From Kryptolebias marmoratus (lineage: Eukaryota; Chordata; Actinopteri; Cyprinodontiformes; Rivulidae), in NCBI RefSeq assembly GCF_001649575.2, contig NC_051437.1, positions 14,331,695 to 14,395,694 of the forward strand: a stretch of 64,000 nucleotides of DNA, written 5' to 3'. How positions within the stretch are numbered: position 1 is the stretch's first letter; each line of letters starts with the position of its first letter. The notes beneath the pieces are model-generated. The model was not told the DNA's origin and ran no database searches. It saw only the letters and a list, made by a program, of their open reading frames with translations. This document shows, one piece after another, positions 5,946 to 58,359 of this stretch. A program made the translations under genes and the position numbers.

Positions 5946-8900
5946 GTAACACCGGCGCCCTGCCAGCTTCGTTTTAACCTCGCACATACAACATCCTCAA
6001 ACACCGACTCCCCCCCGCTGTGTTTAACAAATCAAGGACATTTACTTTTAAATCGCGTCAAAGGATTCTCACTCTCGGCTGGGGGAAGCTGGAGAGAGAT
6101 TGCAAATCACTGGATGTTACTTCACCTTGACACGAGCTGATCTGCTGAGTTGTTGAAGCGCTAACCTGCATTTATCTTGTGAGGGAAAAAAAGTCTTGCA
6201 GTGTTAAAACCACAGAGTCTTGAGGTGTTATTAGCACCATTCCCTTATCTTTTATTGTGTGCATGTTAGCCCACTTATTACCAACTGTTAAGCTTTGACA
6301 CGCTCACCACAGCTCCTTTTAGTGCTTCTAATACTGCTGTGGTGGCCATTAGCATGCCAGCCTCACCTAACGATCAAACTACCAGCAGCCTGTACAGTAT
6401 TTCTCTCTCTCTTTTATTTTTCTTCAGGTAGCTAAAGCAAGGTTGTTGCTTTTTCTAACTATGTAAAGCTCAGTGTCCCTAAAAGCCAAGATATATTAAT
6501 GTGGATAAACTGAATGGATCATATCAAAGTGTTGTAGATTCGTGAGGAACCACCTCACTCCATCAGCGGCTCAGCTCAGTGGGAGACATACTGTTATTTT
6601 GTTGCTCCCTTTCTCTTCTCTAACTCTTGTGTGCAGTCCTATCACTGCTCACTCCGGGGTGTCGGTCTGTAGTGTGTGTTGTAGACTTCTCAAGTGTGCA
6701 CGTTTTATTTTTTTTTGGCACGACACACGCAGAACTGTGTGGGTCTCTCGGTGTGTCAGTGCACCAAGGGGCTTTGAGTGCCTCCGGTGTTGGAATTTCG
6801 CGTCCAGCTAAGCAGAGACACAATCGGGAGCTGAGCCAGGGTCAGCTGAGAGGGGAAAAACAGTAGGAAGACCACAGCAGATAGCTTAATGGCATGTTAT
6901 CAGTGCAGAATATAATGTGGGTGTGGGGGGGACTGTTCTGGGATGTAGTGGAACTTCCACTTCCTTATAATGAAAGAAATATACAGCACATTTTTATTTA
7001 TGTAGCTTGGCATAAAAGGTTGCATTAATTCCTTGTAAACAAACTAATGTATGTCACAATAACCTGTGATCTGGGATCTCTCGCCTCTATTCACTGTAGA
7101 AAATCCCTAATAGGTTTTATGGGGTAATCCCCAACTTACTTTGGATTCATATTTTCTGGATGCTGTGGTTTATTTCCCCAAGTGAAAATCCGATCAAGCC
7201 AGCAAGATCATTAAATGTTAAAAAGTTAAAGTAAGCATATGTACTACAGGACTTTTCAAAAGCCCAAAATGTAAAAAAACAAACAAACAAAAAATCCTTT
7301 GTGAACCAAATAAAACAGTACATTGTTAAGAATGAATGAATGACAAATATTTGGACAGTAAAGTTGAAGCTGTAGGTTGTTGACATGGACTCGTCAGAGA
7401 AGCTGTTGTAGTTTAGCTTGTTGAAGATAATTTGATTTATTTTATTTCAGTGATTCTTCAGGATTGGACTCAGTATTGTCCCAACATTATGATATTTATT
7501 TTCCCCCCATTCATCTACACAGTTATGAGATGCAAAGCATCAAAAGAAAACTGTTATTTATGTGTTTTTGTTTCAGTCCCAGAGCCAGCCAGCAAGACCT
7601 GGAAAGAGGTGCTTTCCGCAAGTTACAGCAGCTCGACGAGTGGCAACTGGAGCTGGGACGCCAGTGACCAGTCCGTGCCCTCCACGCCGTCCCCGCCGCT
7701 TTCCAACGATGCCAACAAGAATTTCCTGCTCTCGTCCCAGGGCGACGATGTCAGCGAGGATGTCACAGAAAGCACACACTTCATGTTTGAGGACCCCATA
7801 CCCCGGAAGAGGAAGGTAAAAAAATGAATGTTGCTGCCCTGTGATGACTCTTCTGAGAGTAACCGGTTTTTATCCTCATATTTAAAATGTCAAGACTAAA
7901 TACACACAGTGGAGATTAGAAATCAAATTCAAGGCCAAAGATGTAGACAGATTCATCAAACAAGCTTTTTCTTTTACAGAGCAGAAGGGAGTTACTTTCG
8001 AAAATACTAGAAATATTCCGAAAATGTAACAGCCTCTGATATAAAGCTTGTCCTTCTCCACTTCGATTAGCAAAGGATTAACTTCACCCTTTTCATTTTT
8101 CTTCTTATTCTTGTTCAGTTTCGACAGTTTCACACACTGAGGTCTTCTCGCAGTCAATAAGCCTTCCGTCGCTTTTAAAGTCCTTCAGGGGAGGAAGACG
8201 GGACAGTCGAGGGAAAATGATGGAAAGGATTTAGACGGGGGGAGGGATGAAGCATGGGTTGAAGGGATTCGGCAAAACGAGAGCTTTTGGAGTTTGTTAG
8301 GAAAAGGAGGAAAGTTATTGCTCAAGGCAACCTCGGGAGGAGAAACGGAGCTGTGCATTCCCTCCACCCTTCCCTCCACCCTTCCAGTGGTAGAGGGGAG
8401 TTCATATACTGTGCATGTGGGAGTCTCCAATTCAGTCTCTTTGAAGCAAGACTGCAGTAAAGATCATTGACTTCCTGATAAAAATATAGAACCACACAGT
8501 ATCTAAAGACAAAGCTGCAAAATTGGCACATCTTACTTTCTATATAAAACATTCATGATCCTGAAGTAGGATAGTGCTAGGAGGAGGAACAGTCTGTTGA
8601 CTAGAGGAGGACTAAAAATGAGTTGGATTCAGATTTTAGTTTGTTAATCATCCATCCATCCATCCATCCATCCATCCATCCATCCATCCATCCATCCATC
8701 CATCCATCCATCCATCCATCCATCCATCCATCCATCCATCCATCCATCCATCCATCCATCCATCCATCCATCCATCCATCCATCCATCCATCCATCCATC
8801 CATTCATTTTCTTTACCTGCTTCTCCATTCCGGGTCACAGGGAGCTGGTGCCTATCACCAGCAGTCACTGCGAGAGGCGGGGGACACCCTGGACAGATCA

Positions 8901-11679
8901 CAAGTCCATCGCAGGGACACATAGAGACAAATGAGACAAACAACCATTCACACTCTCCCTCACACCTAGGGACGATTTCAGAGTTATTAATGAACCTAAC
9001 ATGTGTGTTTTTGGTCTGTGGGTTTATTAATCCTCAACATGTTTGTTTTTTTTATCCGAAAGAATTAGATATAGTTAAATCAGTCTGCAGAAAAGCCAGA
9101 TACGGATGAAGTATCTTCATCTCCCCACTCTGTCCTGGTCATGAGGAAGTAGAGGTGTCTCAGGCCCAGCGTTAAAGCGTCAAGGAGCTAATGGTGTACA
9201 CGCACCTCTTCACCCTTCATCTTACGGGACTCCTTACCAAACAGAGCACAGTTTACCCATCAAGATGGGATGAAGCCTAACTCCACTCTAGTGCCTGAAC
9301 ACACAATAGATTCATTAACAGTGTTCCTTTTTTTTTTCTTTCCACGATCGCTGAGCCAAAACAAGGCTGCTTTTAAATGTCAAATGTGAGGCGAGCGCCG
9401 CTCACGCTGGCAACTCTGAACAACATTCTTTTTGAGAGCGAACACATGCTGTAAGGTGAGAACCCTTCTCACATTAATGGTGTATTTGCCACTAGGGCTT
9501 GGAAACTTTTTAGTCACTTTTAGAGATTTGTTTCTTTTACCCTGAATGGTAAGAAATCGAGCAAATTTAAGGCAAACCCTCGGTATTTCTTAGATAAAAC
9601 ACTGGATCACAGAAGTCGAGCTCTCCTAAAGTACAGAAAAGTGTCTCACTTTACAGAAGCTGAAAGCGTTTACAGCAGGTGTGAGATACATGTTTTTTCG
9701 GAGGGTTACTTTGACTTCGTTAAAGCGCTCGAAAGGACACACACTGAACTGAAACACGAACGCAAAATGCTTCCTACCTCTATCAAACCTGACATCATAT
9801 CAGACATACAAGGTCAGACTAAATCCTACTTTGATTCCCTTGTAAAACAGCACGTGTATGACCTGCGTTCTGATTAGTTGATGGTCCGCTGCTTAATGGA
9901 AAACATTATGCCATGTTGGAGGAAACTTAAAGGGCTTACTTCGAAGTCAGTTTGTAGAGTTGTTAGCATTCTTGGCAGAAACACAGCAGTTGGGGCAATA
10001 AAATGAGATAACAGGTCTTAGTGAAAGAATGTAGCATAAAGTTATTTATTTCTCTTTTTTGAAGCATTTATGGTTAGTCTGATTAAGCCAGCACAAACAC
10101 ATTATTAACTTTGTAAAGAAAACTATATTTTGAACTACTTTAGCCCAAAAATATAGACAGCACCCTCTGCTGGATGCAGGTGAAAAGGCAGTGTTTACTT
10201 TGCCTTTATTGACAACTGTAATAATTTTTAAAATGCTCATTTTTTCATTCTTTATTTTAAGGTTTTTGTTTTTATTTGAGATTCTCAGAGGCTGAAAGGA
10301 GATCATCCAGCGGCTGCCTCTGGCTGCATTTTGCCCGCGTGTGATCTAATGTGAGCAGCTATTGATTGGATTGCAGTAGGCTGACAGATTTTATACAAAT
10401 AGGGAGTTAAGAGGATAATTTACCCTGGCTATTAGCTGAATTACTGTAAATGTGTTAAGATGACAGGAAAAGAGCTTAAGGAATAAGATGATTTATTGAT
10501 TGCTAATAGGGTTTGGGGTTCCTTTGCTGTACTTTTTCTTTTTTAATTTCTTTTAACTATCGTGGTTGGGTGGATTCAATTAGTCAACATTTCACAAGAG
10601 GTCTAATAACCTGTTTTTGTCGAACACAATGATGAGAAGTAATAACAGTCAATGGGAAATGTTTTATAGTACCTCGAAGTTAACATAACCATGAATCGAA
10701 AACATTATCTGTGGATGAGTCATTCTAAAGCTCTAATGCTCTTTTTTTTTTTTTTTTCTTCATGGGCTGTTTGAGGCCACTGGAAGCACACACCCACTGT
10801 CTTTTATTAGCAGGGATGCAGGTCTCTGCCTGCTTAGGGGAGTGAGCTGCCAGCCCTGACATGTGGGGAAAAAAAACAAAACAATGAAATGAAATAAAAC
10901 CCCATGAATGCAGTCTAACCATCTCCTCACAGTTTTGCTCATGAGTCATGCGCCTTATTCTGTTTTACGTTAAATGAGATTTAAGGAGCCCTGGGACATA
11001 ATTCAAGGCCTCCTAATTTTGAGAGAGGCTCTGAGTCGTGTGTGTGTAACAACGCAGGCATCGTCAGCCCTAATCTTATCATCAAATGTTTCCTCACCAC
11101 ATTCCACATCATGTGCAAATAGCAAAGAGATGGGAAAACAGAGCGTTGAGTTGCTTGTTTCACGTTCTAAATAAAGGTTTATTTGGGCTGGTCTCTCCTG
11201 AGCTCATTCACTGTCTTACCAGCTGTTGAAATAAATCTTCAATGAGGAGTTTTTTTAATGTTGTCACTCAGTTTTTCAGTAACGGCTGACCTGTAAAAAT
11301 CACACAGAGGACAGTAACATTTTGCAAAAAGCTGTGTTCCCCCCAAACATCTGAACGACTTCAGCCGAAACACCGATCATTTAGTTTGATTAGTTTTCAT
11401 ATCATCGATCAGGGTTAACCTTCTTATGTTAAGCAGATAACATTCATCTTCAAGGGTGTTTGTACGGATGCATGATTGACTTTTTCACGTTAATCCAAGC
11501 TTGTCTAAAGGATCGATCACCTGAATGATTTTTCTCTCCTTCGCAGAACTCCATGAAGGTGATGTTTAAGTGCTTGTGGAAGAACTGTGAAAAAGTCCTC
11601 AGCACTTCTTCAGGGATCCAGCGACATATCCGCACCGTCCACCTGGGGTGGGTTGTTCCCACTGCAGCAACACTGAGCG

Positions 11680-11765
<86 letters not shown>

Positions 11766-14700
11766 AGGCAGTAACATGATCTTCATGAGTCAAACATTCA
11801 TTATAACACAATCAAAAAGTATTCAAAAGTATTTTTCTCTGTAAATGTTGTCATTTTTATTTATTTTTATTACAATCAATTTAGCTATTTTCAAAATGAT
11901 TCTGCTGGTGTTTTACAGAACTGGAAGCTTAGGTTTTAGTGTTCATAAAACCCCTTTTTTAATCTTTTATCTGCTGTTTTGAGGTTGTAGATTTTGTGAT
12001 GTAGACAAAACTAGTGACACCGTTTGGATTCGGTCCACCTAGAGCTAACTAACTGAGCTCATGTAATATTCCTGCAGACTTCTGTGAGCACACATGTAAT
12101 CAAAATCACTGTGTTGGTTTGCATGTGCTGGTAGTACTTTTACTTTGCAAAATGACATATAATTGACTTTGTTAAATATTTGTCCTTCTTGTGATTTTTG
12201 TTTGTTTTTTTGGAATCTGCTTGTAAGACTTTTTTTTTTTACCTTCCCAAAACACAAATAATCACATACATCCTGTAATTATAGGTGCACTCACACCTAC
12301 TTTCAGTAGGTGTCAGTGAATTGAATTTAAAAACAAACACAGATGAAATATTTGTCTCAGACCGAAACAGATTTTTATTGCACAAAAAAGGAAGTGTTCA
12401 AAATGTATCTACATTCTTGTTTAAAAAAACAAATATGCAAAAATAAGAATTTAACAGACATATAGGGGGGTGGTCGCTTGAAATAATGAAACTAAATAAG
12501 TTTTATTTTGTTTATAAACCTGGGGAATCTAACTGCTGGACTGACCTTTTGAGTAGAAACGGTCTTCTCTCTTTAAAGCCAACCAGACCTCGGTCAGGAT
12601 TGGTTCCAAGAATAAAGCTGTGTGACCAACTTTTAAGATTTAGATCAAAATAATAAATAATAACAATATGCTTGAGGTTTTTCACATGAAGGACAAGCTA
12701 TTTGAAACAAGGGACGTCAGAATAGCTTTTAGAGAAATATCAGATGTTTTCTAGGAATCCAAAGAGTCAAAAGATGTGAATAAATGTTTTGTTTTAGGAA
12801 CATTATAGGAATGTGGAATTTAGTGATCAACTGAGTCTGAAAATTCATGTTGGGCCTTAATTTGCCAATTCAGAACATGTTTCTGATGATTATTGACATC
12901 CAGTAAAAATGAGATATTTCCTTGTGATTTATTACTTCTGTGTTATTTCTGTTCATCTGGTTTTAAAGTTTAGTTTAGTCTGCAGGATGTGCTTTTACTG
13001 CCCCCTGCTGCAAGTGTTTGTAACTGCAGCGTCATGTCTGATTCCTTACATTTCAGCACCACAACCTGTACGCCTACTGATTATTTGAAAAAACACAAAA
13101 CAACAATTTTTCAAACAAAAAACATGAAGTTTGAAGTTGTCTGTTTCCTTCCTGCAGGCGAAACAGCGACTCAGATTACAGCGACGGAGAGGAGGATTTT
13201 TACTACTCAGAGATTGAAGTCAACATGGACAGCCTAACGGAGGGCTTGTCCAGCCTCACACCTACCTCCCCCACCACGGCCGGTCCTCCGCCCGTCTTCC
13301 CCCCGCCGCTGAGCGACGTCGCCCGCTCCGAGCACATCAGCGTGAATGGTTCGCAGAGCCACACCTCGTCACTGCTCAGCCAATCAGCTCCCTCCACACT
13401 CTGCCACATTCGCACTGACCACGCCTATCAGGTAATTCACACACACACACACACATGGCACCTGACATCACACACACACAGGTTGCATTCATCACGTCGA
13501 CGTTGCTGCAACGCCATTAAATAAATTTGATTTTCTCTCTAATAGAAAGATGCTTTATTGATTTCCCAGAGGGAAATGAGCTAAAAATGAAATTTGCAAA
13601 GGCAGTTTTTGAGATCGGCTGCAAAAACAAACAAAACAAAAAGAAATAAAATAACATTCAGAGTGTTATGTACTCCGACGCAGATGTGGGAGTGGAGTGA
13701 GAGAACCAAAAAGTTCGCGTATAAAATTATATTTGTACAGTTTTATCAAATATTTGAGGTTCGAAAAGTTTTGGTTAGGTGGTGTGATTATGCTTAAAAT
13801 TCCTCCTCACACCACCTCACTTGAACCGTTTTGTGGTAACTGGGTTTCGATGCCCCCTCCCTCCTCCTTTTCCTCCTCCTCCTCCTCCTCCTCCTCGTTC
13901 TTCCTCTTTTTCTTTCACTTCTCCTTACTGCACCAGTTCATGCACATCCATCGTTTATATATATGTGGCTGGAGGTAAAATTCAATGATTTCAGTTTGAA
14001 AAACACTTAAAAAAAAAAAAAACTATTCGATGTTGAATGCAGTTATTTGCAGGGGTTTTTAGTAGTAGTAGCTGAACTTTCAGTTGCCATGACAATCATA
14101 AAAAAGACATAAAAATAGATTTGCAGTGTGCATATGCAGGTAATCTGTAACCAGTTTATGTTTCATTTTTATCCTTCATTGTATCATATTGCTCCGTGTT
14201 TGTTTCTGCTGTTTTGATTTACATTCATATATTATTTCTCTCGAAAAATCCCATTTAAATTTGCCTTACTAACTGTTCATATCTATTTCTATTGTATTCT
14301 TCTCTTTGTCTCCTGCCTTCTGCGAACTTCCTGTCCCTCCTTGTTTTCGTTGGGTCCCCCCACCCCCCACTCCCCACCTCCGGCTGTGTGGGGTGGTTGT
14401 CCATGTTCCAGGCCACCGCTCCAGTGAGTATCCCAGTGGGTCCTGAGCTGGCTGGGATAAGCAGTGGTAATGGGATCGGGCCTGGAACTGGGACTGGGAA
14501 TGGCATCAGTGTGTCTTGGCAGTCCCCTCCTGTCATTTTTAAAGGCGTCCCGGTGAGTGAGGCTTTGTCTCACGCCTTGTTTTTTTTATTTTTTTTTATT
14601 TTTTAATTCTCAATCTTCACTCCTTCCCTGCTGTTTCCACTCGCAGCCACTGAAGTTATGTTTTTTGCAACACTTTTTTTTTTCTAACTCTCATAGCTTT

Positions 14701-21959: not shown

Positions 21960-22990
21960 AAACCACAGTTTCATTGTTTATTTTTACAAACTTGAAGCCA
22001 GAATAAAGAAACCAGCACCCTTCGATTCAGCAGCGTGTAGAACCTCCTTTAGCACCTAGACCAAGAGTCATCATCTGTATGATTTTATCAGACTCTGACA
22101 TCAGTGTGGAGGAATATTGGCCCACTCTTTTTTTTTTTTACAACAGTACTTCAGTTCATTTAGGTTTGCAGGCGTCCGTTTGCGGGTCCCACCACAGCAT
22201 GTCGGTCGGGTTTGAGGTCTCAGTTCTGACTCGACCACTGCAGTTTCAGCCGCTCCGCTGGAGGTTAGCTGTTTGGGGGAATCATCGTCTTGTTCACACG
22301 ATCCAGTCTGGGTCAAGCTTCAGCTGCCAGACTCTGATTTGAGCCCAGAGTCCTTTGGGCTGCAGAGCACGCTCAAATCATCACCTCTCCACCACCGTGC
22401 CTTAAAGGTAGGTGCGAGGAGTTTCTGATCAACACTGTTTGGTTTTTGCCAACCATGATGCTGTGCATTATGGGTAAACATTTTAATTTTAGTCTCATCT
22501 GTCAAAAGGACATTGTTCCAGACGTCTTGTGGTTCATTCAGATGAAATTTGACATTTATTTTAAGGAGAAGAGATTTTCTCAAAGCCATACAAATGAGTG
22601 TTTTTCTTACAGTACTGTCATTAAAACACTTATTATTTAACATGCTAACTGAACCCTGTGGACTCGGAGATGCAGCACTTATTGGATTTATTTGGAATTT
22701 CTCCGTGCATTGGCAGCTGTTTGAAACGTTTTCTCTTTGTGAGTAATCTCTCCGTCGAATAATGGACTCCAGATAGTTCGCTGCCCGTCCCAGACAGCGG
22801 GCAGCGACAGGTGCTTCTTGAAGGACATTGCTGATGCCTTTCCACCCTGTCACTGTGGTAACACACACCTGTTTGCTCCGGAGCAGCAGCCAGACAGAAG
22901 CTGATGATCATTTGACCGAGTGGGTCTGATCAGCTGCACCTGGCTGATTTACGTCTGGCTTTTTACGTTTAATTAATAACGACATGGTGG
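21960..22990 (-). mobile_element. Decayed Tc1-like (Tc1/mariner) DNA transposon
   Basis: Minus-strand translations in several frames give Tc1 transposase blocks in order: NVLQEAPVAARCLGR-like N-terminal region, HLNEPQDVWNNVLLTDETKI (the DDE-region 'W..V..TDE' motif), FTHNAQHHGWQKPNSVDQK, and near 22110-22180 ANLNELKYCCKKKKEWANIP with the terminal 'AAKGGST'-like end around 22040. Frames shift repeatedly and stops interrupt the blocks, so it is inactive. It fills the gap between the two convergent genes. Confidence 0.8.
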
Positions 22991-27129: not shown

Positions 27130-27570
27130 CTAAGAGATCCAGGCGAAGTCCTTCTCGCTCCCGTTCTGCTGCTCCCCCTCCTGGGCCGAGGAGTCGCTCT
27201 CCTCCTTCTCATTGTCCAGTGCTCTGTGTGCCTCGGCGCTCATCCCTGAGTCCTTCCACTTCCCCCCGTCCTCCTCCCCTTCGCCCAGGATCTCCCCGTC
27301 CCCCTCCACCATCATCTCCTCCTCCCCTTCGCCGTCGCCGTCGCACTCCGCCTGGTCGTCGTGGAAGCGGTCGCCGGGGTACACCTCCTCCTCGGGCGAG
27401 ATGTCCCCGCCCGCCTCCCCGTTGTGGTCGAGCAGGGCGGCCATGCCCCGGCCAGAGCAGTCGGCGCAGACGCCGTGGCGGCGGGAGCCATGTTTGATTC
27501 CGACGCTGGCTGCAGACATGAAGACCCGGCTGCAGACTTTACACACGTACTTCTTGTCTTTGCTGTGGAC
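27130..27570 (-). CDS. zbtb46: zbtb46-like terminal coding exon, canonical isoform
   Basis: The minus-strand acceptor is CATCCCACAG before 27570. The exon begins [20 protein letters not shown], whose His completes finger 2. It continues with a degenerate Cys/His segment (x13 rather than x12 between Cys and His) and [13 protein letters not shown], then a long acidic tail ending KDFAWIS and TAG at 27130-27132. The tail codons are GC-rich with synonymous Asp/Glu/Gly repeats. Confidence 0.95.
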
Positions 27571-30500
27571 CTGTGGGATGGAGACACACCAGTTCACATT
27601 TTTAATTTACACTCCAAGCAGAGGTGTGATGTGCTGCGCCTTGGGGGGGGGCACAACGCAGAATGCACTCACCAACGTGTGCCTCTTCATGTGCTCCCTT
27701 CTGGTGAACTTCTTGCCACAGATTTCGCACGGGTAGGGCCTCTCACCTGTGTGGGAGCGCATGTGCCTCTTAAGGATGCACTGGTGCATAGCAGAGAAAC
27801 TGCAGTAGGGGCACTTGAACTTTTTACGGATCACCGTGAAGTCATTCACTGCAAAGCCAGAAAGGAGGAGGGAGGGAGGAAGGGAGGGAGGGAGAGAAAA
27901 CGAAGGAAAAAAAAAAGAGATTAGTTTTAAAGAAACTCATTCAAGAAAAAAAAAAGAAAAAGGAACACGACTTCTCTTTTCAGTTATTGCATTTAATTAG
28001 CAGCATGGGCTAGAAATGTAACATCAATTCCCATGGTCATCCCAATCCCAGTCAAAGCTACAGTTGCCCTGGCAACAGCTCTTCCTTCATACTAAAGCAA
28101 TAAAGGCATAGAGATACTATAAACACATGGCACAACAGTCAGTCTGCCTTGGGTTGCTCTAGAAGGTCTTTACAATGAACAGGGAAAAAAAAAACACAGA
28201 CAGAAAGGCAAACAGACAAGAAAATCAAATCACCTACACAAAGGGAAGGACATTGAATTACTCAAAGCAGGATACTGTATATTAATATAAAAGATCAGGA
28301 CAGGATTTCTGAGTATAAAAGCACAACACACACTGCACACATCGACTGCACGTGAAGGAGGGGTGTAAACCACACAGGGAAGAGTTATAAGGTGGCACAA
28401 AGAAATTACCTCCAAGTGCTTCTGCTCTGATCAAACAGCCGACAACACGTCAACAAAAAAATATATATATATATATAAAAGGACACAAAAACTGGGCAAC
28501 AGATTCAGGCATCCAGACTGTGAAATATTGCTACGCATGTACATGTTTGCGTACAGAAAACAGATTAGAAAAAAAAGAAGACGACTGGAGCAAATTCTAC
28601 ATTTTGAATCGCAATTTATTCACATCATAAAATCTACTAACAGAGATTGTTTCCAAAAAAAGAAAAAGAGAAGTACAAATCTCCGAACAGTACATGGGTT
28701 TCAGCGATACATTATTTAATCTAGCTTCACGTAGCTTTCTGTTCTTACATCAACACTTACTGAAAATCAAAAGTACCACGCCACAGTCAGACACGTTATT
28801 TCCTACTTCTCTTCAAGCGCTGCAGATTTTCTCGTTAGTTCCTGAGATCCATCAATCTGCCGGTCTGTTTCAGCTGCTGGTTTCGACAGAATAGGCTACC
28901 TGAAAATGGGATTTTTATGATGCATTTGGCATTTGGGTGTTTCCCTTGCATATATAACTTTTACACACATCTGCAAACGGGGAGATTCCCAATAGAGTCA
29001 AGTTTAGCTTCTTTTTTTTTTTTTTTGGAGCACCTAGAAAGGTAGAAGCAGGTGGATGTCTGCTCTTTGGGTATAGTATTCACAATATGGGTGTCGTTAA
29101 ATGGGTTTTGTATTTTTGTTGCACGGATGCTGTAAACTCAAAGCCAAAGATTTTGGCAGGAATGGGTCTAAATTTACATCAGCAGTGATCAACATGGTCC
29201 TCACCACCTTCCTCACGCTCTCACATTTTTCCCCACTTGATTCCCCATTTTCTGCCCCGAGCACACAACCGCACCATTATGGCTCGGCAGGCGTGACATC
29301 ACCAAGCTCATCTGGTTTAAAGGTCCTCTGCCCCCATCGGCCCCTGCTTCCTCTTCAGATGTGGGGTCAGAGGTTAAGAGGGGCCGGAGCCGTGAAGGAC
29401 CAATTACTGTCCAGGTCCTACCCCACTCAGCTGCTACAAGACTTACAAATCTGGGACAGAGGAGCTGGTCATAGAGAGGAAAAAAGAAAAAGAAAATGAC
29501 ACCACCCAACCCCCATCTGAGCTGCTACCGGCCTATTGTTTTAGCAGGCTTTGTCTCGTTCCGCACATCCCCTCCATCTGTGCCAATCTGACAGCTCTGA
29601 CTGAGTGAAGTCATGTCAGAAAGATGACTGAAAACAAGATTCAGTGTGTCCCTTGCATGTGGCACAGAATTCCTTTGTCATTATTTCTTTGCTATTTTTA
29701 TGCTCTGTCTAAACTTCTCTCATGCCACTGCTAAAAATCTGATGCAGAAAGTCTTGTTTGGACTCTTTTTGGATTCTGTTTTCTTGCCGTAGTGCTGCAA
29801 AGATCCTGCAGGTGGTGTGGTTGTTTGGGGCTGTGAGCCACGATGCCTGACAGGTATGAACTCTGAACGTCTTCGTGAGAGCAACGCAGGGGTGGCCTCA
29901 TAGATTACGATCTTTCTGCCTAAAAAAGGACTCAAAAGTCAGAACGGTGAGTGGGGACAGAGAGCCAGACAAGTGCTTTAGGTTGAAGAGGGGGACATAC
30001 CCTCCCACCCCCACCCCCGCCCGCCCCNGTTTTTTGGGTGGAGGCGGGCGACATCCCCCCCACCCCCCCCCCCCGCCCGCCTCTCCATTCGGCACTGCAG
30101 TTAAAAGTAATCCACCTGGTTATGGGTACAGTCAACGCTCTTCGAAACTACCTAACCGTCCTAAAACATTGCATAAACTTTGGGTCAAACGTTTCTTCAG
30201 TCAGATTCATTTTGCATAGCAATTGTGCATTTCTAACAAATAAGGTGACACTTTTCATTAGGTCATTCTTACACAATAATATTAACAATATTCAACAAGT
30301 TGTAAAAAATATGGGTCACACTTTTGATTGTAAAAGTGCAAAAACATCACAAAGCATTTTTTTTTTGGCATGAATGTTAAACACAAAGTGAAGGATCACT
30401 GCCAACTGAACAAATGGGTATATAAGTGAGTTTCACAGGCTTTCCACGTCAATACTGCTGTTAAAACTGTCAACTTTCATGTGCTGCGTTAGCTGCCACA

Positions 30501-31957
30501 GTGGATCTGTAAGTCCACCCTGAGACATTTCCATTCCAGTGCTGCCTCCCAGTATTGCTGCTGGCAGCAGCCCCACCTGGCAGCACACTTTAACGTGCGT
30601 CGCCAGGTTTTTCTGGGTGCTAAAAGCCTTGGCACAGGCCGGGCAGGTGTGACCCCTCTCTCTGGAGTGTACGGACGACAGGTGCCTGTGCAGGTCTGTG
30701 CGGTCGCGGAAGTGTTTCAGGCAGTACGCACACTGCATCAGCTTCTTCTTGAAGTGGATGGTCTTCTCGTGTCGGTCCGCGTTGGATTTGAGGGTGAAGC
30801 TGGCGGGGCAGTGGGAGCAGAAGTAGCGTGCGGCCGCGGGCTCACCTACCAATGGGCGGTATAGGGACTGGCGGAAGTAGGGCGGCTGGGACTGGGACTG
30901 GGGATGGGGCTGGGCGGGCTGGTGGAGCGGACCCTGCATGCTCGGCCAGTCCAGGGACAAGGCCATCAGAGACAGGGTGTGGTGGTACTCGTGTTCCCTG
31001 AGATGCTCCAGGCTGCCGAACAGCCGTTTGCACAGGGAGCAGGCCAACCCCTGCGAGGAGCTTGCACCGTGCTCTGGCAGGACTCTTTCCCCTGATCCAG
31101 CCTCTTCACCCACTACGAGCAGCCCCTTAGTTCCTGTGCCAGCCATGGACACTGACACAGGCACTGACAAGCCCTCTCCCATCTGATCCCTCTCATCGGG
31201 AGACTGGTCACCTTCCAAGGCTGAAACAGTGAGAAAGGAGGCAAAAATAAATGTGAAAAAAAAGTGAGGTACAAGAATAAACTCACAAGCCATTGAGAAA
31301 TTGCAACTTTCAATTCGTACCTGTGTCATCCTCTTTAAGGTCTCCTTTGTCTTTTATGCCCTCCTGTAAGCACAAAATATCCCGTTATGTCTCACACACT
31401 CACACACACACACACACACACACTGTAAGGAATGTTGTCTGGGCATGCAAGAGGCAGGAAGGTGGTACAAGCTGTGAAAGCAACTTTCTTCTCATGCAAA
31501 ATGCACAGAGATAAGGTCACGAACAAAGAAAAGTGAAAAGAAAGATGTAAAACAAGGTCATGATTATTTAAAGACAAGTTTAAGATTAGAGAATAAACAC
31601 AAAAAGATGACAGTTTAAAGATGCCGCAGTGGTCTGGTGGGACGCAGACCGAGCTGTTAGGTTGATCTACAGTGGTAATAACATTAGCTACCCGATGCTC
31701 GTAAAACTCTTTCCCGTTCTTAAACCACCTTTCCACCCAAGTCAAACTCTACCCCCTCCACTGTCCACGCCATGCCTGCGCCATTCCTTCGCCCTACACC
31801 CCCATCCACCCCCACCCATTGGTTCAGCTCCTGCTCTCCTCCTCCTCTCTAAGAACAGAACACCATGCTCTGGGAAACAGATGGCTTGTCCGTAGAGATA
31901 GGCAGGCTTGTTGGGAGGCAGGTCCACTGAAATCAAATGCTGCTCCTAAATGCTCAC

Positions 31958-31994
<37 letters not shown>

Positions 31995-34900
31995 ATCGTG
32001 CTCACACACAAACTGGCACAAAACCACACAAACGCGACTGTCTACATACATACACACACACACAGAGCAGAACAAACAATTTCCTGAGCGGAGAGACCAA
32101 ACCCCTCTTTGTCTTCAAGTATTGATTCTACTCAGTCTCATCACACTACCTTGCCCGTTATCTGCTATCTCTAAGCACACGCTGTCATTGTGGCTGGAGG
32201 TGTCATCTCCAATGTAAGCGCTATCAACTACATTATTGCTAATGCTATGCTAAGACTCCTGGCTTTAAGGCGAATTCAGGTCTAGCTATATTAAAAGATT
32301 ATCAGAGCAAAGAGAGGCAAGAGAGAAGGGGGACAGAAGTCTGAAAGGAAAGGAAAACAAAAAGCTTAAAGAAAAGAGAGGCAAAAAAACACAGACATTG
32401 TTACACCAGCGCGGCAGGAAATATGTCATACAATGCATTAAGTGCAGAGAGGAGTTGCAGTAATGAAAAAGAGCCCCGTTAAGGTGGTATCTCACTGAGC
32501 TGCGGCTGGTGGGAAACTAGTTGGTGAACAAAAAAATCCAGTTTTTCAATAAATATTATTTGTCATCGGCATGGTTTTTAGAACTAGACATTTGCCCTGA
32601 ATGTTTTCTGTCAAAGGAGAGTTACCGAGCAGGTGTCCAAATACAGCTGGAGTGCTCTTGAATATTTATCTCCAGTAACGGAGTTGAAGCCACTTGCGGC
32701 TAAATGCAGATGAATTCAAGACACGTTGAAGACGCCCATCACAACTTTGGGACTATTTGGAGAGAAAAGTTGTTGCACAAATTTTTAAAACCCGTTCTAA
32801 ACTCAAGTGGCAGGGCTGTGCGTGTCTGTGACTCACACAGGGAAACTGAGAACCACACGAAAGCCGCAAGACATTTGGGAGACTCCCTCGTGAATGCCGT
32901 TTGCCCGGTGAGACACCACCTTTAAAAGTCGCTTTTTTGTTGTTGTTGTTGTTGTAAAACCCACTTTGCTTCCTGTCCCACCCGTTCAGTAGATATCCCC
33001 TCACTTCTCAGCCCCCCTCTCAGTGTGTGTGGAGGCAGGGTGAAGCTGCTCCCTGGATGCTTCTCTCGACTTTCTGATATGAACTTTTATCTAATGAGAG
33101 GAGCGGCACCCGGAGAGCGGCCTCCACCCTGGACCCGAGCCAGGCTCAGGGTGCTTACCTCTGGCAAGGCGGAGGGTTCCGGGCCCTCGGGGGCCTCTTC
33201 CACTTCCATGTCCAATCTTTCCGTGTTCAGCAGGGGTGCCCCAGCCCGTAGACCGGGGGCCTCCAGGGGCCGAGGCTCTGAGGGGTGCAGTGGCGTGAGT
33301 GGAGTAGGTGGGCAATATGCTGGTGTTGATGGTGGCAGGTGTGGTGGTGGTGATGAGGATGATGATGATGGTGGTGGTGGTGGTGGAAGATGAGGAGGAA
33401 GAAGAGGAAGAGGAGGAGAGGAGCCAGCGCCCTGTTTGTTATGAACAGTGGCCCCTGTGGCCCCTGGCAGGAGCGTGCTGCAGTAGTTGTTGGAGCGGAG
33501 CCCTGAGGAGCACAGGAAACGAGTCTCACCCACCCACTCACGTACAACTGCAACTCTGCTAGCAGCTGGCCACCAGAACACACAACAGGAGAGAGTGGGC
33601 AGGGGGGTGGGGGGCACACAGAGGCTGCCAGTGCTACGCTATCAAACACTGAGGAGAGGGGGAGGAAGAAAAACTCCGAAGTTTCACTTTCCACCAGCCA
33701 AGGGGAAAGGGTTAGGGCTTCTCTTCTCTCTTTCTCTCTCTCTTTTTTTTTCCTTTGCTCCTCTGCTCTCCTTCTCCTTCCACCCACATGTGTGCGCAGA
33801 GGATGGCAGCATGTGTGTGTGTTTTGTGAGAGTGTGTGCAAACGTTGTGTGCGCCAATGAAATGCATATAAGGAGAGAGGGCTTGAGGATCCTCTGTAGC
33901 GTGGAGGCAAATAGTTTTGGAGAGAAGCCATGTTGCTGCTCAAGTGAACACTTTTTCTTGTTTTTTGTACAAACTGGCCAAAGGACGACTACACGGACCG
34001 TGTAAGATATTTGCCAGAATCGAGTTAAGACTCGCTGGGTGAAGAATTTTTGAACGTCTCACAAAGCCTTTACAGCACACACACAAGTCCTCCTGCTGTG
34101 TAAAGTTTACTACAAGTTGTTGTGTGTGTTTAGGGGGAATGTCTCCAGAGTTATGCAGTGGGTTAGCCATTCATTGCACTCCCCTTCACAATGGACAGAA
34201 TCACACATCCATGAGGTTTGATTCCTGGAATGTTAAACGCCTGACACTCCCCACTCCCACTTACTGAGAAGACACACAAAAGCTGAAATCCCCATCTCTT
34301 CCTCCCTGCCCCAGCAGTGACAGGAGGAACAACCCTGCGAGCGAAGAAGAAGTGGAAACAGGGAGTAAATGAATGAGCTACAGGTGAGACAGAGCAGCTC
34401 ATTAACTAATGGTGTTCTGGCAGTAGACACCTGTCAGGGAAGGGCGATTATGGAATAACTCCGTTAGTTGGCTTTAACACTCAGTACATTTTCAAGCAGA
34501 GTTAAGTTAAGCTACAGTTAGAGCGTGACTAGGCCATTTAATTGGCCTGCTGTCCTTTTCGCAGAATACAAGCATTATAACAGAACCAGTTTATTGACTG
34601 AAATATGTCAAACTTTGCTACAAAAGATGGAAATATGCCTCCTTCTTCTGTCCTCCTGCACCAGTTTCTTCAGTTCCTTTCAGGTCAAAGTCCAGGGGTC
34701 GTCCGTGGAGCATGTGCAAAGTGCCCAGATCTTTTTGAGTTTGGAAGAACGTACGAATAAAAGAAGAATTCAACTCCCCGCCGCATTGTCTTTGAGTGTG
34801 AATCCAACTTTGTGAAATCCAATTTAGTAAAACCTCTAAAGGCATTTTAAAATCTTGCTTTTAAACAGACTAACACAGCAGTTTGACTCGTTTTTTTTTC

Positions 34901-37933: not shown

Positions 37934-40450
37934 GACTGTTTAACACCCTCAGTGAGTAGCAAAGAAAATGAGAAAGTAAGAAAAATCTCTTGTTACAGAC
38001 AAATTAAACACGAATGCTGCAGCGTATTCATCTATTATCAACATGAATGGAAAGTAAACAGATTTTTTATTTTTAAGTAGAGGAATTTAAGGGAACATGA
38101 CTGCTGATAGATTATTTTATATTTTTAAAAAACAATGTTGGTGTAACTAGGAAAAAATGAAAGTCAGATAACATTTTAAAATGTAACATTTAAATATGGC
38201 TGCACAGTGTATCAAAAATGTATCATCATCACAACATAAATATTGCAAAAGACTGCTTGGAAAATCACAAGCTGTTATAAACCAAGTGCGATGCATTCAC
38301 GCTCTGAATGAAGATAGGATTTTTGCCCGTCCAATGCAGCGTCACCGTCTCTCTTGCCCACACCTGGTTTATATCAGTAGTTTCCAACCTTTTTTTCCTC
38401 AGAGCCCCCCTTCTGGCGTCAACAGAAAAGCTCTGCGCACATGCACACAACCACTGAAAGAATCACTTGTTGATTTAGCGTTTGCCATTCGTCGATGCTA
38501 CAGTTGAGATATTTTTGCACTTTACAAACAAATAAACAGCCAGTGTCTTATCTTTTATTCAATCATCCAGAGATGAGATGTCAGGATGTTTGTAGCAGCT
38601 GGTTAAAGGCTTTTCAATTTTAATTATTATCGTTTCAAGGAGCTGAAGACTCACACGCAGACACAGCACTGATGGGACCCGAATCTACGTGGTCAGTCTG
38701 AGCCCAACAGATTGTCCTTTGTTGACCCCAAACTTTTCTCTCAGATTGTTTTCCTGCTTTGAATCAGCCTGAAGACAGAGGCGATGCCAGGCGTCTCGTT
38801 ACATCGCGGTGGTGCAGTGAGCTGAGCGCAGTTTTTACTGCTCACCGCATCGCTGCTGTTTGTTCTGCACACTACTAAAGTTATCTGTAATAGTTTTAGA
38901 TCAGTGCAGACACCATTTCTTATCAGCTATATAAATTATGTCTCCATGGCCTGCATTACATAGGAATCATGAAATCTCTGGATTATTATTTGAAGCACGT
39001 CAAAAACAGTTAATAGAAACAGAAGAATCTTTTATAAGTACATGTAAACACTGGAAAAAAATGTCTCCAGACAGTGCATAAAGAAGTTCTCAAAAATCCA
39101 CCAGCTATTTTCTTTCTGTAAATCTGACTTGTAGCTCCTGTTTGACAGTTTTACTCCCTCTGTGCTTCAGTTTGGAGATAAGGTTTGACTCGGGATGCTG
39201 CATCTGTTGGTCTCGTTGTAAAGACTGACGTGAACAAGGTCGTGGTGTTTTATTCAAGAAGTGCATCAGTCTAAGTTGTACACAAAGGCGCTATATTTAT
39301 TGTAGTCTTTTGCTTTTAATTCTCCTTTTTTTCTTGTAAAAAGCAGCTCTGTGTGTAACAGCAATATTTCACGGAAGTCAAATTTCCCCAAAACTTTTCA
39401 TAACTATTTTAGTATGTTGTTATTTCGTACATGTGCAAAATATGTTGACAGCCTTTGTTGTTTTAAAGCCTTGTGCTGCTCCTTGAACTCTCTCACAACC
39501 CTCTCCAGGTTGGGAATCACTGGACAAAATGCTTTAACCGTTGTGAGCATCATACAAAGCAATATTGTGATAGTTATCACATTATTCAAAAATATTAACA
39601 GAACTGCATATTTTCCAAGTGCACCGCTTGACTTAAATGTTAAAAACAACAAAAAAAAACAACTTTTTTTTTCTGTTGCAAGTTTTGTATTTGTTAGTAA
39701 ATACAAATATTGGAAACTGTTTCCAAAAAATTGACATTTTTCTGTGAACTGCTGTTCTGTTGGATTTCTTCTCCCCCTGCTGCTGTGAAATACAGCCGCA
39801 GACCTACTGATACACACAAAGCATGAAAACCCAAAAGAATTTTCTCAAGACAGCACGACTGATCCCAGCAAAATGTTCTCTCACTTAGTCACTGATGAGT
39901 AGTCATCACTGGCACTGCCACATAAATTGGTTATCCGCTCAAGCACCACACACACACAGACACACACAAACACACACACATGCATTGAGATTTAACCCAA
40001 TTGAGGGGATGATGAAAACAATTTGCTGCTGAGGACACTCATAGTTGCATCTCGGTGACCACATGTGCAGATATTCAAAGATACTCCAACAGATCTGAGT
40101 TTTAGGTTGTGTGGCTTAGTTGTGTGTAACAACCAGTGTGTGATTAGTTCCAGTAAATAAATACTTACAAGACAGGGAGTGTCCTCCTTTGGGCAGGTAT
40201 TCGTACAGTAAGGGGTTATCATCTCCCATCATCTCAGCCCGCAGAGACAGCAGGCTGTTCTTACTCATCAGCGCTGCCTTCAGATTGGCCACGGACGAGA
40301 TCCCTCCGCCCACCGCCCCACCGCCAGCCTCCTCCGATTCGTTGGTGCCCAGGAAGCCGGGCTCCGCGGTTAGGGCCTCTTCCTGTTTGAGGAAGAAGTC
40401 GAGGCGTTCGCTGCGGCTGTCTGAGCTGTTGGGTTCAGTCACGTCTGCCC
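27130..40450 (-). CDS. zbtb46: BTB zinc-finger transcription factor zbtb46-like, canonical isoform, 5'-incomplete
   Basis: Exons 40169-40450, 27673-27848 and 27130-27570 (minus strand) join in frame to 298 residues ending in TAG. The visible part has an acidic linker with [19 protein letters not shown] and [12 protein letters not shown], two C2H2 fingers (Cys106, Cys109, His122, His126; Cys134, Cys137, His150, His154) linked by TGERPY, and a post-finger segment [17 protein letters not shown] followed by [13 protein letters not shown] Glu/Asp-rich tail ends in KDFAWIS. The finger pair, the LDH...SPE...PGD spacing and the KDFAW-I/L-S end fit ZBTB46, a nuclear repressor known in mammals as a classical dendritic cell and endothelial factor. 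The roughly 300-residue N-terminal part with the BTB dimerisation domain is not in the window, so the gene continues past the right edge. ZBTB10 is the alternative paralogue. Confidence 0.85.
27673..27848 (-). CDS. zbtb46: zbtb46-like coding exon with zinc finger 1 and most of finger 2
   Basis: The minus-strand acceptor is GGCTTTGCAG before 27848 and the donor is ACGTTG|GTGAGT at 27672. The 176 nt exon is phase 1 in and phase 0 out. It encodes [15 protein letters not shown], finger 1, the TGERPY linker and finger 2 up to HMKRHTL. The final His of finger 2 is supplied by the next exon, across a short 102 bp intron. Confidence 0.96.
28600..30432 (-). other. Probable 3' UTR of the alternative module
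   Basis: Downstream of the TGA at 30433 on the minus strand there is no further exon before 27848. Candidate poly(A) hexamers are AATAAA (TTTATT near 28615) and ATTAAA (TTTAAT near 28716). If one is used, the alternative transcript would end about 0.8-0.9 kb before the canonical finger exon. The region includes a C/G-homopolymer stretch with a single N at 30028. Confidence 0.4.
30001..30086. repeat. C/G homopolymer-rich stretch, with one N
   Basis: Multiple runs of 4 or more C on the + strand, including a run of about 13 C, flank a short G-rich segment, with a single N at 30028. The minus (transcribed) strand has many G runs able to form a G-quadruplex. Confidence 0.85.
30433..31220 (-). CDS. 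Alternative-module terminal exon: four zinc fingers
   Basis: The minus-strand acceptor is CTCACTGTTTCAG before 31220. After the split Ala codon it encodes 261 residues and TGA at 30433-30435. Finger 1 is residues 60-80 ([18 protein letters not shown]). After a Pro/Gln-rich spacer, finger 2 is 134-155 ([19 protein letters not shown]), finger 3 is 163-184 ([19 protein letters not shown]), and finger 4 is 192-213, a C2HC/C2CC variant ([20 protein letters not shown] then VCC). The spacing and conserved Phe/Leu positions are those of functional fingers. The tail ends [12 protein letters not shown]. Codon use and finger integrity argue against a pseudogene. The protein family is not recognised beyond C2H2. 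Confidence 0.85.
30433..40450 (-). CDS. zbtb46: Predicted alternative zbtb46-like isoform with a different four-finger C-terminus
   Basis: Minus-strand exon 40169-40450 can splice to 33159-33502, then 31321-31363, then 30433-31220, giving one open frame of 484 visible residues. All borders are AG/GT and all phases agree (1, 0, 1). The alternative part has a Pro/Ser-rich linker, an acidic microexon, and an exon with four zinc fingers ending in TGA. The junction with the upstream exon makes Trp in place of the canonical Leu. This would swap the two-finger DNA-binding end for a different one on the same BTB body. Joining to exon 40169-40450 is inference from phase. A separate nested gene starting at the ATG at 33209 is possible. 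I do not recognise this finger array as a known family. Confidence 0.6.
31321..31363 (-). CDS. Alternative-module microexon (43 nt)
   Basis: The minus-strand acceptor is GTGCTTACAG before 31363 and the donor is ACACAG|GTACGA at 31320. It encodes [14 protein letters not shown] plus one base. Phase 0 in matches the end of 33159-33502 and phase 1 out matches the start of 31220. The following intron is only 100 bp. The exact phase match on both sides is the main support. Confidence 0.65.
31961..31991. repeat. (CA)n microsatellite
   Basis: A CA run in the intron between alternative-module exons 33159-33502 and 31321-31363. A second, shorter run lies at about 31399-31422. Confidence 0.92.
33159..33502 (-). 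CDS. Alternative-module exon 1: Pro/Ser-rich linker
   Basis: The minus-strand acceptor is GTGCTCCTCAG before 33502 and the donor is CCAGAG|GTAAGC at 33158. The 344 nt exon is phase 1 in and phase 0 out (114 codons). It starts [16 protein letters not shown], then has runs of Pro and Ser encoded by a GGT/GAT-type repeat, and ends in an acidic stretch [17 protein letters not shown]. An ATG at 33209 in good context (GACATGG) could be a start if this is an independent gene. Confidence 0.65.
35430..35620 (+). mobile_element. MITE-like fish repeat fragment
   Basis: 'Gaccgtattttctgcactat' and 'gggcgcactggattataag' are followed by 'gcactgtcaatgaatggttc'. The 'actataNggcgcac..ggattataag' words are typical of a widespread teleost miniature DNA element. 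Right boundary approximate. Confidence 0.5.
36686..36736. repeat. Near-perfect inverted repeat (23 bp arms, 5 bp loop)
   Basis: GTTTCCCGTGTTATTACCTC and the rest of the arm (36686-36708) pair with 36714-36736; 21 of 23 positions are complementary, with two adjacent mismatches. The loop is CACAA. It lies in the intron between zbtb46-like exon 40169-40450 and the alternative module. Confidence 0.9.
40169..40450 (-). CDS. zbtb46: zbtb46-like internal coding exon (acidic linker before the fingers)
   Basis: On the minus strand the acceptor is CTGTTCAG|GGGCAG at 40451 and the donor is GTCTT|GTAAGT at 40168. The 282 nt exon enters and leaves in phase 1 (2 nt + 93 codons + 1 nt). It encodes [14 protein letters not shown], a Gly-rich insert, then the conserved [19 protein letters not shown] and [12 protein letters not shown]. 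The last base, T, combines with the next exon to make Leu (canonical) or Trp (alternative module). Confidence 0.9.
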
Positions 40451-42479: not shown

Positions 42480-42990
42480 CATTCCAGTTGATGCTTTGAG
42501 TAGAAGCTGGTGCAAGAGGAGAGTCCCACTGGAAATTAATAAAACTTTTGTGGAGTTTTACAAGCATCTGTATTAATCTGACAGCTATTATGTTTCTATA
42601 GCCCTGATCTCCTTCCTCAGCGGCATTAACACCCCTGCTCTGGATCAGAATCTGGCCAAAAAGCTGCACTGCCCTGTCACTGCAAAGGAGCTTGAAGACG
42701 TAATTAAATCTTTACAAAGTGGTAAAAGCCCACATCCAGACGATTTCCCAGTCGAATTCTACAAAACGTTTTGGAAGAAGCTGGCCCCATACCTATTAGA
42801 GATGTTTACTGAGTCTTTTAATGCAGACATGTTTCCCCAAACGTTGAAGAAGTTATTTATCTTGTTGCTTTTGAAACAAGGTAAAGACTCTTTGTTATAC
42901 GGTTTTAAATCGCCCTATGAGTCTGTTAAATGCTGACTTCAAATTGTTGGCAAAGTTACTGGCCAGGTGCTTTAAAGTAGTTTTTACAAA
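42480..42990 (+). pseudogene. L1-like LINE reverse transcriptase fragment
   Basis: Plus-strand translation around 42600-42900 gives AKELEDVIKSLQSGKSPHPD followed by DFPVEFYKTFWKKLAPYLLE, MFTESFNADMFPQTLKK and KQGKDSL. After a frameshift near 42910 it gives SLLNADFKLLAKLLARCFKV. These are the consecutive L1 ORF2 reverse transcriptase blocks upstream of the catalytic core. It is truncated at both ends and frameshifted. Confidence 0.8.
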
Positions 42991-57487: not shown

Positions 57488-58359
57488 AGACTCACCGGCC
57501 ACTTTATTAGGTACACTTTGCTAGTACCGGGTTTTTGTCCTCAGAACTGCTTTAATTATTTATGGCAAAGATTCAACAAGTTGTTGGAAACATTGCTCAG
57601 AGATTCTGGTCCATATTGACACGTTAGCATCAAACAGTTGCTGCAGATTTGTCAGCTGCACGTCCACGATGTGAATTATGATCCACCAAAGGTGCGCTGC
57701 TGGATTATGATCTGGTGACTGTGGAAGCCACTGGACTTCAACGAATCGAGACTCATCAAATCAGGTAATGTTTGTCTTTTGTGCCTCCTATGTTCATTTT
57801 GGTGAGCCTGTGTGAACTGCAGCTTCAGTTTCCTGTTTTTAGCTGCCAGTGTGGTCTTCTGCTGCTGTCGCCCATCTGCTTCAAGGCTGGACGTGTTGTG
57901 TGTCCAGAGATGGTTTTCTGCAGACCGTGGTTGAAACGAGTGGTTATTTGAGCTACGCTTGCCTTCCTACCATCCTGCACCAGTCGACCCGTTCTCCTAT
58001 GACCTCTGACATAACAAGGCTTTTTTTGGTCTACACAAATGCAGCTCACTGGATATTTTCTCTTTTTTGGACCATTCTCTGTAAAACCTAGAGGTGGTTG
58101 TGTGTGAAAATCCCCGTAGATCAGCAGTTTCTGAAATACTCAGACCAGCCCGTCTGGCACCAACAACCACGCCACATTCAAAGTCACTTCAATCCCCTTT
58201 TATTCCCCGTTCTGATGGCCTGTTTGAATTTCAGCAAGTCATCTTCACCACGTCTACATTCCCAAAGACATTGCATTGCTGCCATTATGATTGGCAGATT
58301 AGCCATTTGTCTTAATGAGCAATTGAACAAGTGTACGTAATAAGGTGGCCAGTGAGTGT
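57488..58359. mobile_element. Non-autonomous DNA transposon with terminal inverted repeats
   Basis: The left end (57488-57516, 'actcaccggccactttattag' then 'gtacac') and the right end (58332-58359, 'gtgtacgtaataaggtggcc' then 'agtgagtg') are inverted repeats of about 28 bp with few mismatches. The 872 bp body includes 'ttcaacaagttgttggaaaca' and 'ctggtgactgtggaagcc', familiar from abundant teleost repeats. No intact transposase. Superfamily not assigned. Confidence 0.75.

What the first reader, a model, noticed from the sequence alone, without database searches (positions are those of the whole stretch)
30433..33502. Alternative zinc-finger C-terminal module nested inside a zbtb46-like intron
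Seen: three minus-strand exons (33159-33502, 31321-31363, 30433-31220) with consensus splice sites and matching phases encode a Pro/Ser linker, an acidic microexon and four intact zinc fingers ending in a stop. They sit between the last common zbtb46-like exon and the canonical two-finger exons. Known: Drosophila lola, fruitless and Broad use one BTB head with alternative 3' zinc-finger exons. Inference: this vertebrate BTB gene may do the same, giving two proteins with different DNA specificity. I know of no such described ZBTB46 isoform.
Basis: partly seen in the sequence, partly recalled or inferred. Interest (0 to 1): 0.88.

Follow-up and report, generated by a model that had tools for sequence, protein, structure and literature searches.

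The report
Hidden second zinc-finger ending of ZBTB46
A fish gene for the immune-cell regulator ZBTB46 carries a second, spare DNA-reading end made of four zinc fingers inside one of its introns; gene predictions from sharks to marsupials splice it onto the same front half, but none was found in placental mammals, so human and mouse work may have missed it.

Summary
Exons 33502-33159, 31363-31321 and 31220-30433 (minus strand) have AG/GT borders, matching phases, and encode a Pro/Ser linker plus four C2H2 fingers. The last common exon (40450-40169) ends in phase 1; the four-finger exons and the canonical two-finger exon (27848) both accept phase 1. Database gene models contain the chimera: of 213 related proteins fetched, 83 are BTB + complete four-finger proteins without canonical fingers, many named zbtb46 isoforms. 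They come from sharks, skates, ray-finned fishes, caecilians, reptiles, birds, monotremes and marsupials. Among 88 hits to the marsupial fingers none is placental. DNA-contact residues of fingers 2-4 are nearly invariant. A third output exists: 33 spiny-rayed fish models splice the linker on to the canonical fingers, 29 of them from a donor inside the finger exon (31110 here). So the lola-like inference is supported and goes deeper than guessed: an ancient jawed-vertebrate switch, apparently absent from placentals. 'No described isoform' needs correcting: databases have it, although ten full-text searches (capped listings) showed no paper on it. RNA across 40169-33502 was not seen; DNA specificity is inferred.

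The parts
40169..40450 (-). last common coding exon of zbtb46 (93 whole codons plus split codons; 282 nt, phase 1 to phase 1, so skippable in frame); donor T|GTAAGT
   Evidence: tblastn of P0078 and P0104
33159..33502 (-). alternative exon E4a: Pro/Ser-rich linker, acceptor phase 1, donor phase 0; no Met in its first 97 codons
31321..31363 (-). alternative exon E4b: 43-nt charged microexon, phase 0 to phase 1; its donor could also join 27848 in frame
   Evidence: spliced through in P0007, P0013, P0021; left directly for canonical fingers in P0120, P0121, P0128, P0130
30433..31220 (-). alternative terminal exon E4c: four C2H2 fingers and stop (TGA)
31109..31110 (-). internal 5' splice site inside E4c (exon end 31110, intron GTGAAG from 31109): linker spliced to canonical fingers (form C)
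   Evidence: in-frame join with 27848 checked; equivalent exit in 29 of the 33 linker + canonical proteins
27673..27848 (-). canonical exon with two C2H2 fingers, acceptor phase 1
27130..27570 (-). canonical last exon: CX2C stretch and acidic tail, stop
28615..28620 (-). AATAAA that could end the four-finger transcript before the canonical exons (inferred)

Best explanation
This is the orthologue of ZBTB46 in a ray-finned fish, and the three exons are a real alternative 3' end of that gene. SHOWN from sequence: the donor at 40169 can join in frame either to 33502 (linker, microexon, four fingers, stop) or to 27848 (two canonical fingers, acidic tail). A second donor inside the last alternative exon (31110) can instead carry the linker on to the canonical fingers. 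SHOWN from comparison: gene models with BTB + four fingers occur across jawed vertebrates, and the base-contacting positions (-1, 2, 3, 6) are LSNR in finger 2 (83 of 83) and DTDR in finger 3 (82 of 83). INFERRED mechanism: E4c is a composite terminal exon. When its polyadenylation or the 33503 acceptor wins, the protein carries the four-finger DNA reader; when the downstream acceptor wins, it carries the canonical one. The shared BTB head would dimerise and recruit the same partners, so splice choice redirects one regulator to a different set of DNA sites, and BTB heterodimers could bridge both kinds of site. The module arose before the split of cartilaginous and bony fishes and was apparently lost in placental mammals.
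For: Splice borders and phases. phmmer of the 484-aa spliced query: 309 hits, best 120 listed, led by zbtb46 isoform X1 of Melanotaenia at 82% over 100% of the query. Classes among all 213 fetched proteins: 83 BTB + full four fingers without canonical, 33 BTB + linker + canonical (a stricter BTB pattern gave 65 and 33). Marsupial finger query: 88 hits, all listed, in marsupials, monotremes, reptiles, birds, caecilians, ray-finned fishes, sharks, skates and a ray. Both C-termini on contigs of one length in three fishes: Synchiropus (P0083/P0124), Gouania (P0084/P0125), Antennarius (P0206/P0126). Fingers 2-4 identity to the window: 73% Tasmanian devil, 65% sawshark. Tree of 39 proteins: ray-finned, tetrapod and cartilaginous rows each lie on one side of a supported branch. 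Unnamed assembly proteins P0007, P0013, P0021, P0043 (source label 'lgn', which I take to be assemblies of public reads) run through E4a-E4b-E4c without intron, as spliced RNA would. The linker's first 97 codons have no Met, and the open frame upstream has none before its stop at 33641. CpG o/e at 33501-34500 is 0.30-0.33 against 0.51 for the window.
Against: No RNA read across 40169-33502 was seen; the named proteins look like automatic gene models (naming style recalled). The BTB-less proteins that carry the common-exon junction are all named database entries, none an unnamed assembly protein. Short BTB-less models exist: P0005 Morone (12 members) and zebrafish P0053, named 'zbtb46 isoform X3', start downstream; stickleback P0042 has its own locus name. 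Seven models fuse four fingers and canonical fingers in one protein (P0041, P0062, P0082, P0089, P0096, P0166, P0190), possibly prediction errors, which shows that models are fallible. Sharks and caecilians end the common exon earlier (PKG-PG), so the junction is not identical everywhere. The tree's deep joins are midpoint-rooted and flagged for long branches.
Confidence: 0.87

Rival explanations
1. A separate small zinc-finger gene is nested in a zbtb46 intron with its own promoter, and annotation pipelines have fused it to zbtb46 because phases happen to match.
For: Short models starting at Met in the linker or later (P0005, P0053, P0034, P0042); the unnamed assembly proteins with spliced linker also start at a Met in the linker.
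Against: The junction point after PKG[GT]HSLS recurs from gar and sturgeon to turtles and marsupials. The linker's first 97 codons lack Met yet are 70-87% identical to 12 of 12 fish models compared (local alignments of 64-97 columns). CpG is low upstream.
Confidence: 0.08
2. Both happen: the BTB + four-finger isoform exists, and an internal promoter also makes a short four-finger protein without BTB that competes at its sites.
For: Coexistence of full and short models; zebrafish P0053 is named an isoform of zbtb46 itself.
Against: No start-site data; short models are often incomplete predictions (recalled). The CpG profile near 33500-34500 gives no support.
Confidence: 0.25
3. Splicing noise or a decaying relic without function.
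For: Apparent absence from placentals; the garter snake model has lost zinc ligands (P0209) and the Alligator model breaks in finger 4 (P0189), so it is dispensable in some lineages.
Against: Near-invariant contact residues in fingers 2-4 over 83 proteins and 65-73% identity to shark and marsupial imply long purifying selection.
Confidence: 0.03

Closest known systems
Drosophila lola
   Same: One BTB head spliced to alternative 3' exons with different zinc fingers (PMC1947980, passages read: at least 20 isoforms from a common BTB region and unique C-terminal exons, cis and trans).
   Different: Here only two finger modules, in cis within one gene, in vertebrates; no relation of the finger exons is claimed.
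Drosophila fruitless
   Same: BTB isoforms (BTB recalled) differing in C-terminal fingers; SELEX showed different DNA specificities (PMC3852243, abstract seen).
   Different: Specificity has been measured there, only inferred here.
Vertebrate PATZ1 (ZBTB19)
   Same: A vertebrate BTB-zinc-finger gene whose four spliced isoforms have four to seven fingers (PMC11354804, passages read).
   Different: PATZ1 isoforms vary the number of fingers; I saw no statement of a wholly separate alternative finger array. In zbtb46 the two arrays share no finger.
Human/mouse ZBTB46 (zDC, BTBD4)
   Same: Same gene by BTB head, common exon and canonical fingers (orthology by database names; the mammalian protein is recalled, no human or mouse sequence was compared).
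   Different: Canonical two-finger form only, as far as recalled; no placental hit to the four-finger module among 88.

Membership tests
[quoted passage not shown]
   The window begins at residue 373 of the Melanotaenia protein; the BTB exon is upstream of the window. Four matching database proteins scanned have PF00651 BTB, E 1e-26 to 1e-25.
ZBTB46 orthologue | common exon and canonical two-finger exons matching named zbtb46 proteins | tested here: met
   tblastn of P0078 (95.7% at 40451-40170) and P0104 (80.6% at 27855-27133, read across the short intron); canonical stretch identical over 108 of 108 residues to P0104
BTB gene with alternative finger exons (lola/fruitless type of organisation) | two alternative finger modules downstream of one head, with compatible phase | tested here: met
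   both acceptors phase 1; 83 proteins with only the four fingers, 33 with linker and only the canonical ones
BTB gene with alternative finger exons (lola/fruitless type of organisation) | both mRNAs made in the organism | not testable with these tools
   no RNA reads available; only annotation and assembly-derived proteins
BTB gene with alternative finger exons (lola/fruitless type of organisation) | isoforms bind different DNA | tested here: inconclusive
   contact residues differ: four-finger SEHE, LSNR, DTDR, TKNT in close relatives versus canonical HCIR, REHR; no binding data
Homologue of Drosophila lola or fruitless | common descent of the alternative finger exons | not tested
   no insect sequence was compared; likeness is of organisation only
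Independent nested gene | own promoter and own start codon covering the conserved protein | tested here: inconclusive
   no Met in the first 97 linker codons or the open frame upstream, low CpG; but short models exist in other fishes

The most novel reading that the evidence does not exclude
ZBTB46 of jawed vertebrates is a two-ended transcription factor gene: an ancient splice switch, older than the split of sharks and bony vertebrates, lends its BTB head to two unrelated zinc-finger arrays, with lineage-specific hybrids (linker plus canonical fingers in spiny-rayed fishes; fingers 1-2 plus canonical fingers in birds and an electric ray). Placental mammals lost the four-finger arm, so the role of Zbtb46 in dendritic cells has been studied mainly where half of the ancestral DNA-reading repertoire is gone.
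Probability: 0.7. Interest if true: 0.85.

Novelty: new variant of a known kind. Interest (0 to 1): 0.74.

Why it matters
Swapping whole DNA-binding modules behind one BTB head is known from insects. A two-module case kept from sharks to marsupials would show that vertebrates use it too, in a gene used as a marker of classical dendritic cells in mouse. It gives a direct test: do the two isoforms divide targets or cell types in fish, birds and marsupials, and what compensated when placentals lost one? It also warns that zbtb46 knockouts, reporters and antibodies in zebrafish or chicken may hit one form and miss the other.

Tried and rejected
Independent nested gene: weakened, not excluded (see rivals). 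Relation to MECOM, PRDM16, PRDM2, HIC1, Xfin or XlCGF7.1, names given to some four-finger models: set aside, because several of these same models carry the zbtb46 head or common exon (P0028, P0083, P0090, P0206) and the PDB sequence search gave only generic C2H2 matches. Models joining all four fingers to the canonical fingers (P0041, P0062, P0082, P0089, P0096, P0166, P0190): treated as possible prediction errors and not counted as a form. The bird/electric-ray exit after finger 2 is not possible at that spot in this window, where the codons read AAG AAG AAG without GT. A promoter/terminator scan uses bacterial consensus and says nothing here.

Literature: ten searches. I read titles and the starts of abstracts in the listings, several of which were capped (30 of 44, 20 of 48, 15 of 53, 20 of 146 and 12 of 55 papers; 8 of 9; 12 of 11,275); none of those listed presents a four-finger ZBTB46. 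I saw passages of three papers and the abstract with outline of one. Most subscription papers and preprints are not held.

Counts: the first class count used a BTB pattern that missed some fishes and dropped salmonids P0093 and P0095 (they read TFTLKSN); it gave 65. The recount gave 83, which I use; its junction tally (72/9) is not used because its pattern also matches inside finger 1. P0195 shows no fingers only because that script ignored the first 350 residues. P0209 (broken fingers), P0189, P0197 and P0199 (incomplete) are outside the 83.
Full report
What is there. On the minus strand the window holds the 3' part of a zbtb46 gene. The last common exon is 40450-40169; its 93 whole codons end ...LPKGGHSLS plus one base. 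The canonical end follows at 27848-27673 and 27570-27130, with two C2H2 fingers and an acidic tail. Between them lie 33502-33159, 31363-31321 and 31220-30433, with AG/GT borders. Phases run 1, 0, 1, and the acceptor at 33502 has the same phase as that at 27848. The BTB exon is outside the window: tblastn of the 847-aa Melanotaenia isoform X1 starts matching at residue 373. The 484-aa frame from common exon to four-finger stop is open.

It is a known gene model, not a curiosity of one genome. Searching the 484-aa product found 309 proteins, of which the best 120 were listed. The top rows include full-length proteins named zbtb46 isoform X1 or X2 in rainbowfish, medaka and pipefishes. They begin with the BTB head (MNNRKEDMEI...) and end with the four fingers. 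Among all 213 proteins fetched in three searches, 83 are BTB + four fingers without the canonical fingers, 33 are BTB + linker + canonical fingers, and 9 leave the four-finger exon after finger 2 and go on with the canonical fingers. A first count with a stricter BTB pattern gave 65, 33 and 8. These are proteins, not species: the Tasmanian devil and the koala each give three.

Third and fourth outputs. All 33 linker + canonical proteins are from spiny-rayed fishes (names). In 29 the exit lies inside the finger exon, before finger 1; in four (P0120, P0121, P0128, P0130) it lies right after the microexon. In the window the first join uses a donor after 31110 (G|GTGAAG) and is open in frame through to the canonical stop; the microexon's donor (31321) has the same phase. 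In eight bird proteins and one electric ray, finger 2 (EKTIH...) is followed directly by the canonical exon at the same residue. This window has no GT at that spot. Models from Dunckerocampus (P0090) and black swan (P0182) skip the common exon, which is 282 nt and phase-neutral here.

Depth. A search with residues 490-655 of the Tasmanian devil protein returned 88 proteins, all listed. They are from marsupials, echidna and platypus, tuatara, turtles, squamates, alligator, birds, caecilians, sturgeon, paddlefish, gars, bowfin, teleosts, sharks, skates and an electric ray. None is named from a placental mammal, a frog, coelacanth, lungfish or lamprey. The search sees only proteins of 0.55-1.75 times the query length sharing short words, so absence there is 'not found'. 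It weighs most for placentals, whose genomes are so well covered (recalled). In a tree of 39 finger regions, the 17 ray-finned, 15 tetrapod and 7 cartilaginous rows each lie on one side of a supported branch (97/98, 100/100, 100/99), as vertical descent predicts. The midpoint root is only for drawing, and deep joins were flagged as unsafe.

Constraint. In the 83 complete proteins the residues at helix positions -1, 2, 3, 6 are LSNR in finger 2 (83 of 83) and DTDR in finger 3 (82 of 83). In finger 4 they are x-K-N-x in 81 of 83 (TKNT in 69). Finger 1 varies (28 combinations). The canonical fingers read HCIR and REHR. Identity of fingers 2-4 to the window over 79 residues is 73% in Tasmanian devil, 71% in echidna and swan, 85% in gar and 65% in sawshark. 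Some lineages seem to let the module go: the garter snake model has lost ligands in fingers 2 and 3 (P0209) and the Alligator model breaks in finger 4 (P0189).

Is it transcribed as predicted? Unnamed assembly proteins P0007, P0013, P0021 and P0043 pass from linker through microexon into the finger exon without intron, which suggests spliced RNA. P0003, P0004, P0006, P0008 and P0009 seem to read intron and so come from genomic DNA. None of these reaches back to the common exon, so I did not see RNA across 40169-33502. Against an independent gene: the linker has no Met in its first 97 codons, the open frame upstream has none before the stop at 33641, and CpG is low there. Against my reading: short models without BTB in several fishes (P0005, P0034, P0053), and a separate locus name in stickleback (P0042).

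How it probably works (inference). The finger exon behaves as a composite terminal exon: it can end the transcript (an AATAAA lies at 28620) or be left through its internal donor. The BTB head should dimerise and recruit partners in either form, as in other BTB-zinc-finger proteins (recalled), so splice choice would change where the same regulator binds. In chicken, ZBTB46 is reported in XCR1+ cDC clusters and also in putative plasmacytoid cells, unlike mouse (PMC10634274, passages). Whether the four-finger form explains such differences is an open question, not a result.

Known or new. Alternative finger exons behind one BTB head are known in Drosophila lola (PMC1947980, passages) and fruitless, where fingers give different DNA specificity (PMC3852243, abstract). 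In vertebrates PATZ1 varies finger number (PMC11354804, passages). Ten paper searches, several with capped listings, showed nothing on a four-finger ZBTB46. The isoform is thus present in database annotation but, as far as I could search, undescribed. I rate it a new variant of a known kind. The recount from 65 to 83 proteins did not change my odds.

Noticed in passing
window 31109-31110 (-): Internal donor in the four-finger exon, matched by 29 spiny-rayed fish gene models that splice the linker on to the canonical fingers (4 more leave after the microexon); see the report.
   Followed up: yes
proteins P0201-P0204, P0208, P0210-P0213: Bird and electric-ray models leave the four-finger exon after finger 2 at the same residue and join the canonical fingers, making a hybrid array; shared ancient donor or convergence is open.
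   Followed up: partly
window 7417-13524 (+): Exon-like ORFs that resemble SLC2A4RG/ZNF395-family proteins (recalled likeness; the three ORFs scanned gave no Pfam hit above cut-off); SLC2A4RG is recalled as the neighbour of ZBTB46 in human, which would fit conserved synteny.
   Followed up: no
window 22320-22907 (-) and 57560-58190 (-): Broken ORFs that look like Tc1/mariner-type transposase remnants (recalled motifs).
   Followed up: no
window 42577-42936 (+): ORF that looks like a LINE reverse-transcriptase fragment (recalled likeness).
   Followed up: no
window 8605-8934: Tandem repeat read as (HPSI)n or (WMDG)n in several frames, a minisatellite (seen in the ORF list).
   Followed up: no
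window 31395-31425 (-): A (TG)n run lies just upstream of the 43-nt microexon; such runs can bind splicing factors (recalled), conservation not tested.
   Followed up: no
P0209 (Thamnophis), P0189 (Alligator): Four-finger module with lost zinc ligands or a broken finger 4: possible independent decay in snakes and in an alligator, besides the apparent absence from placentals.
   Followed up: partly
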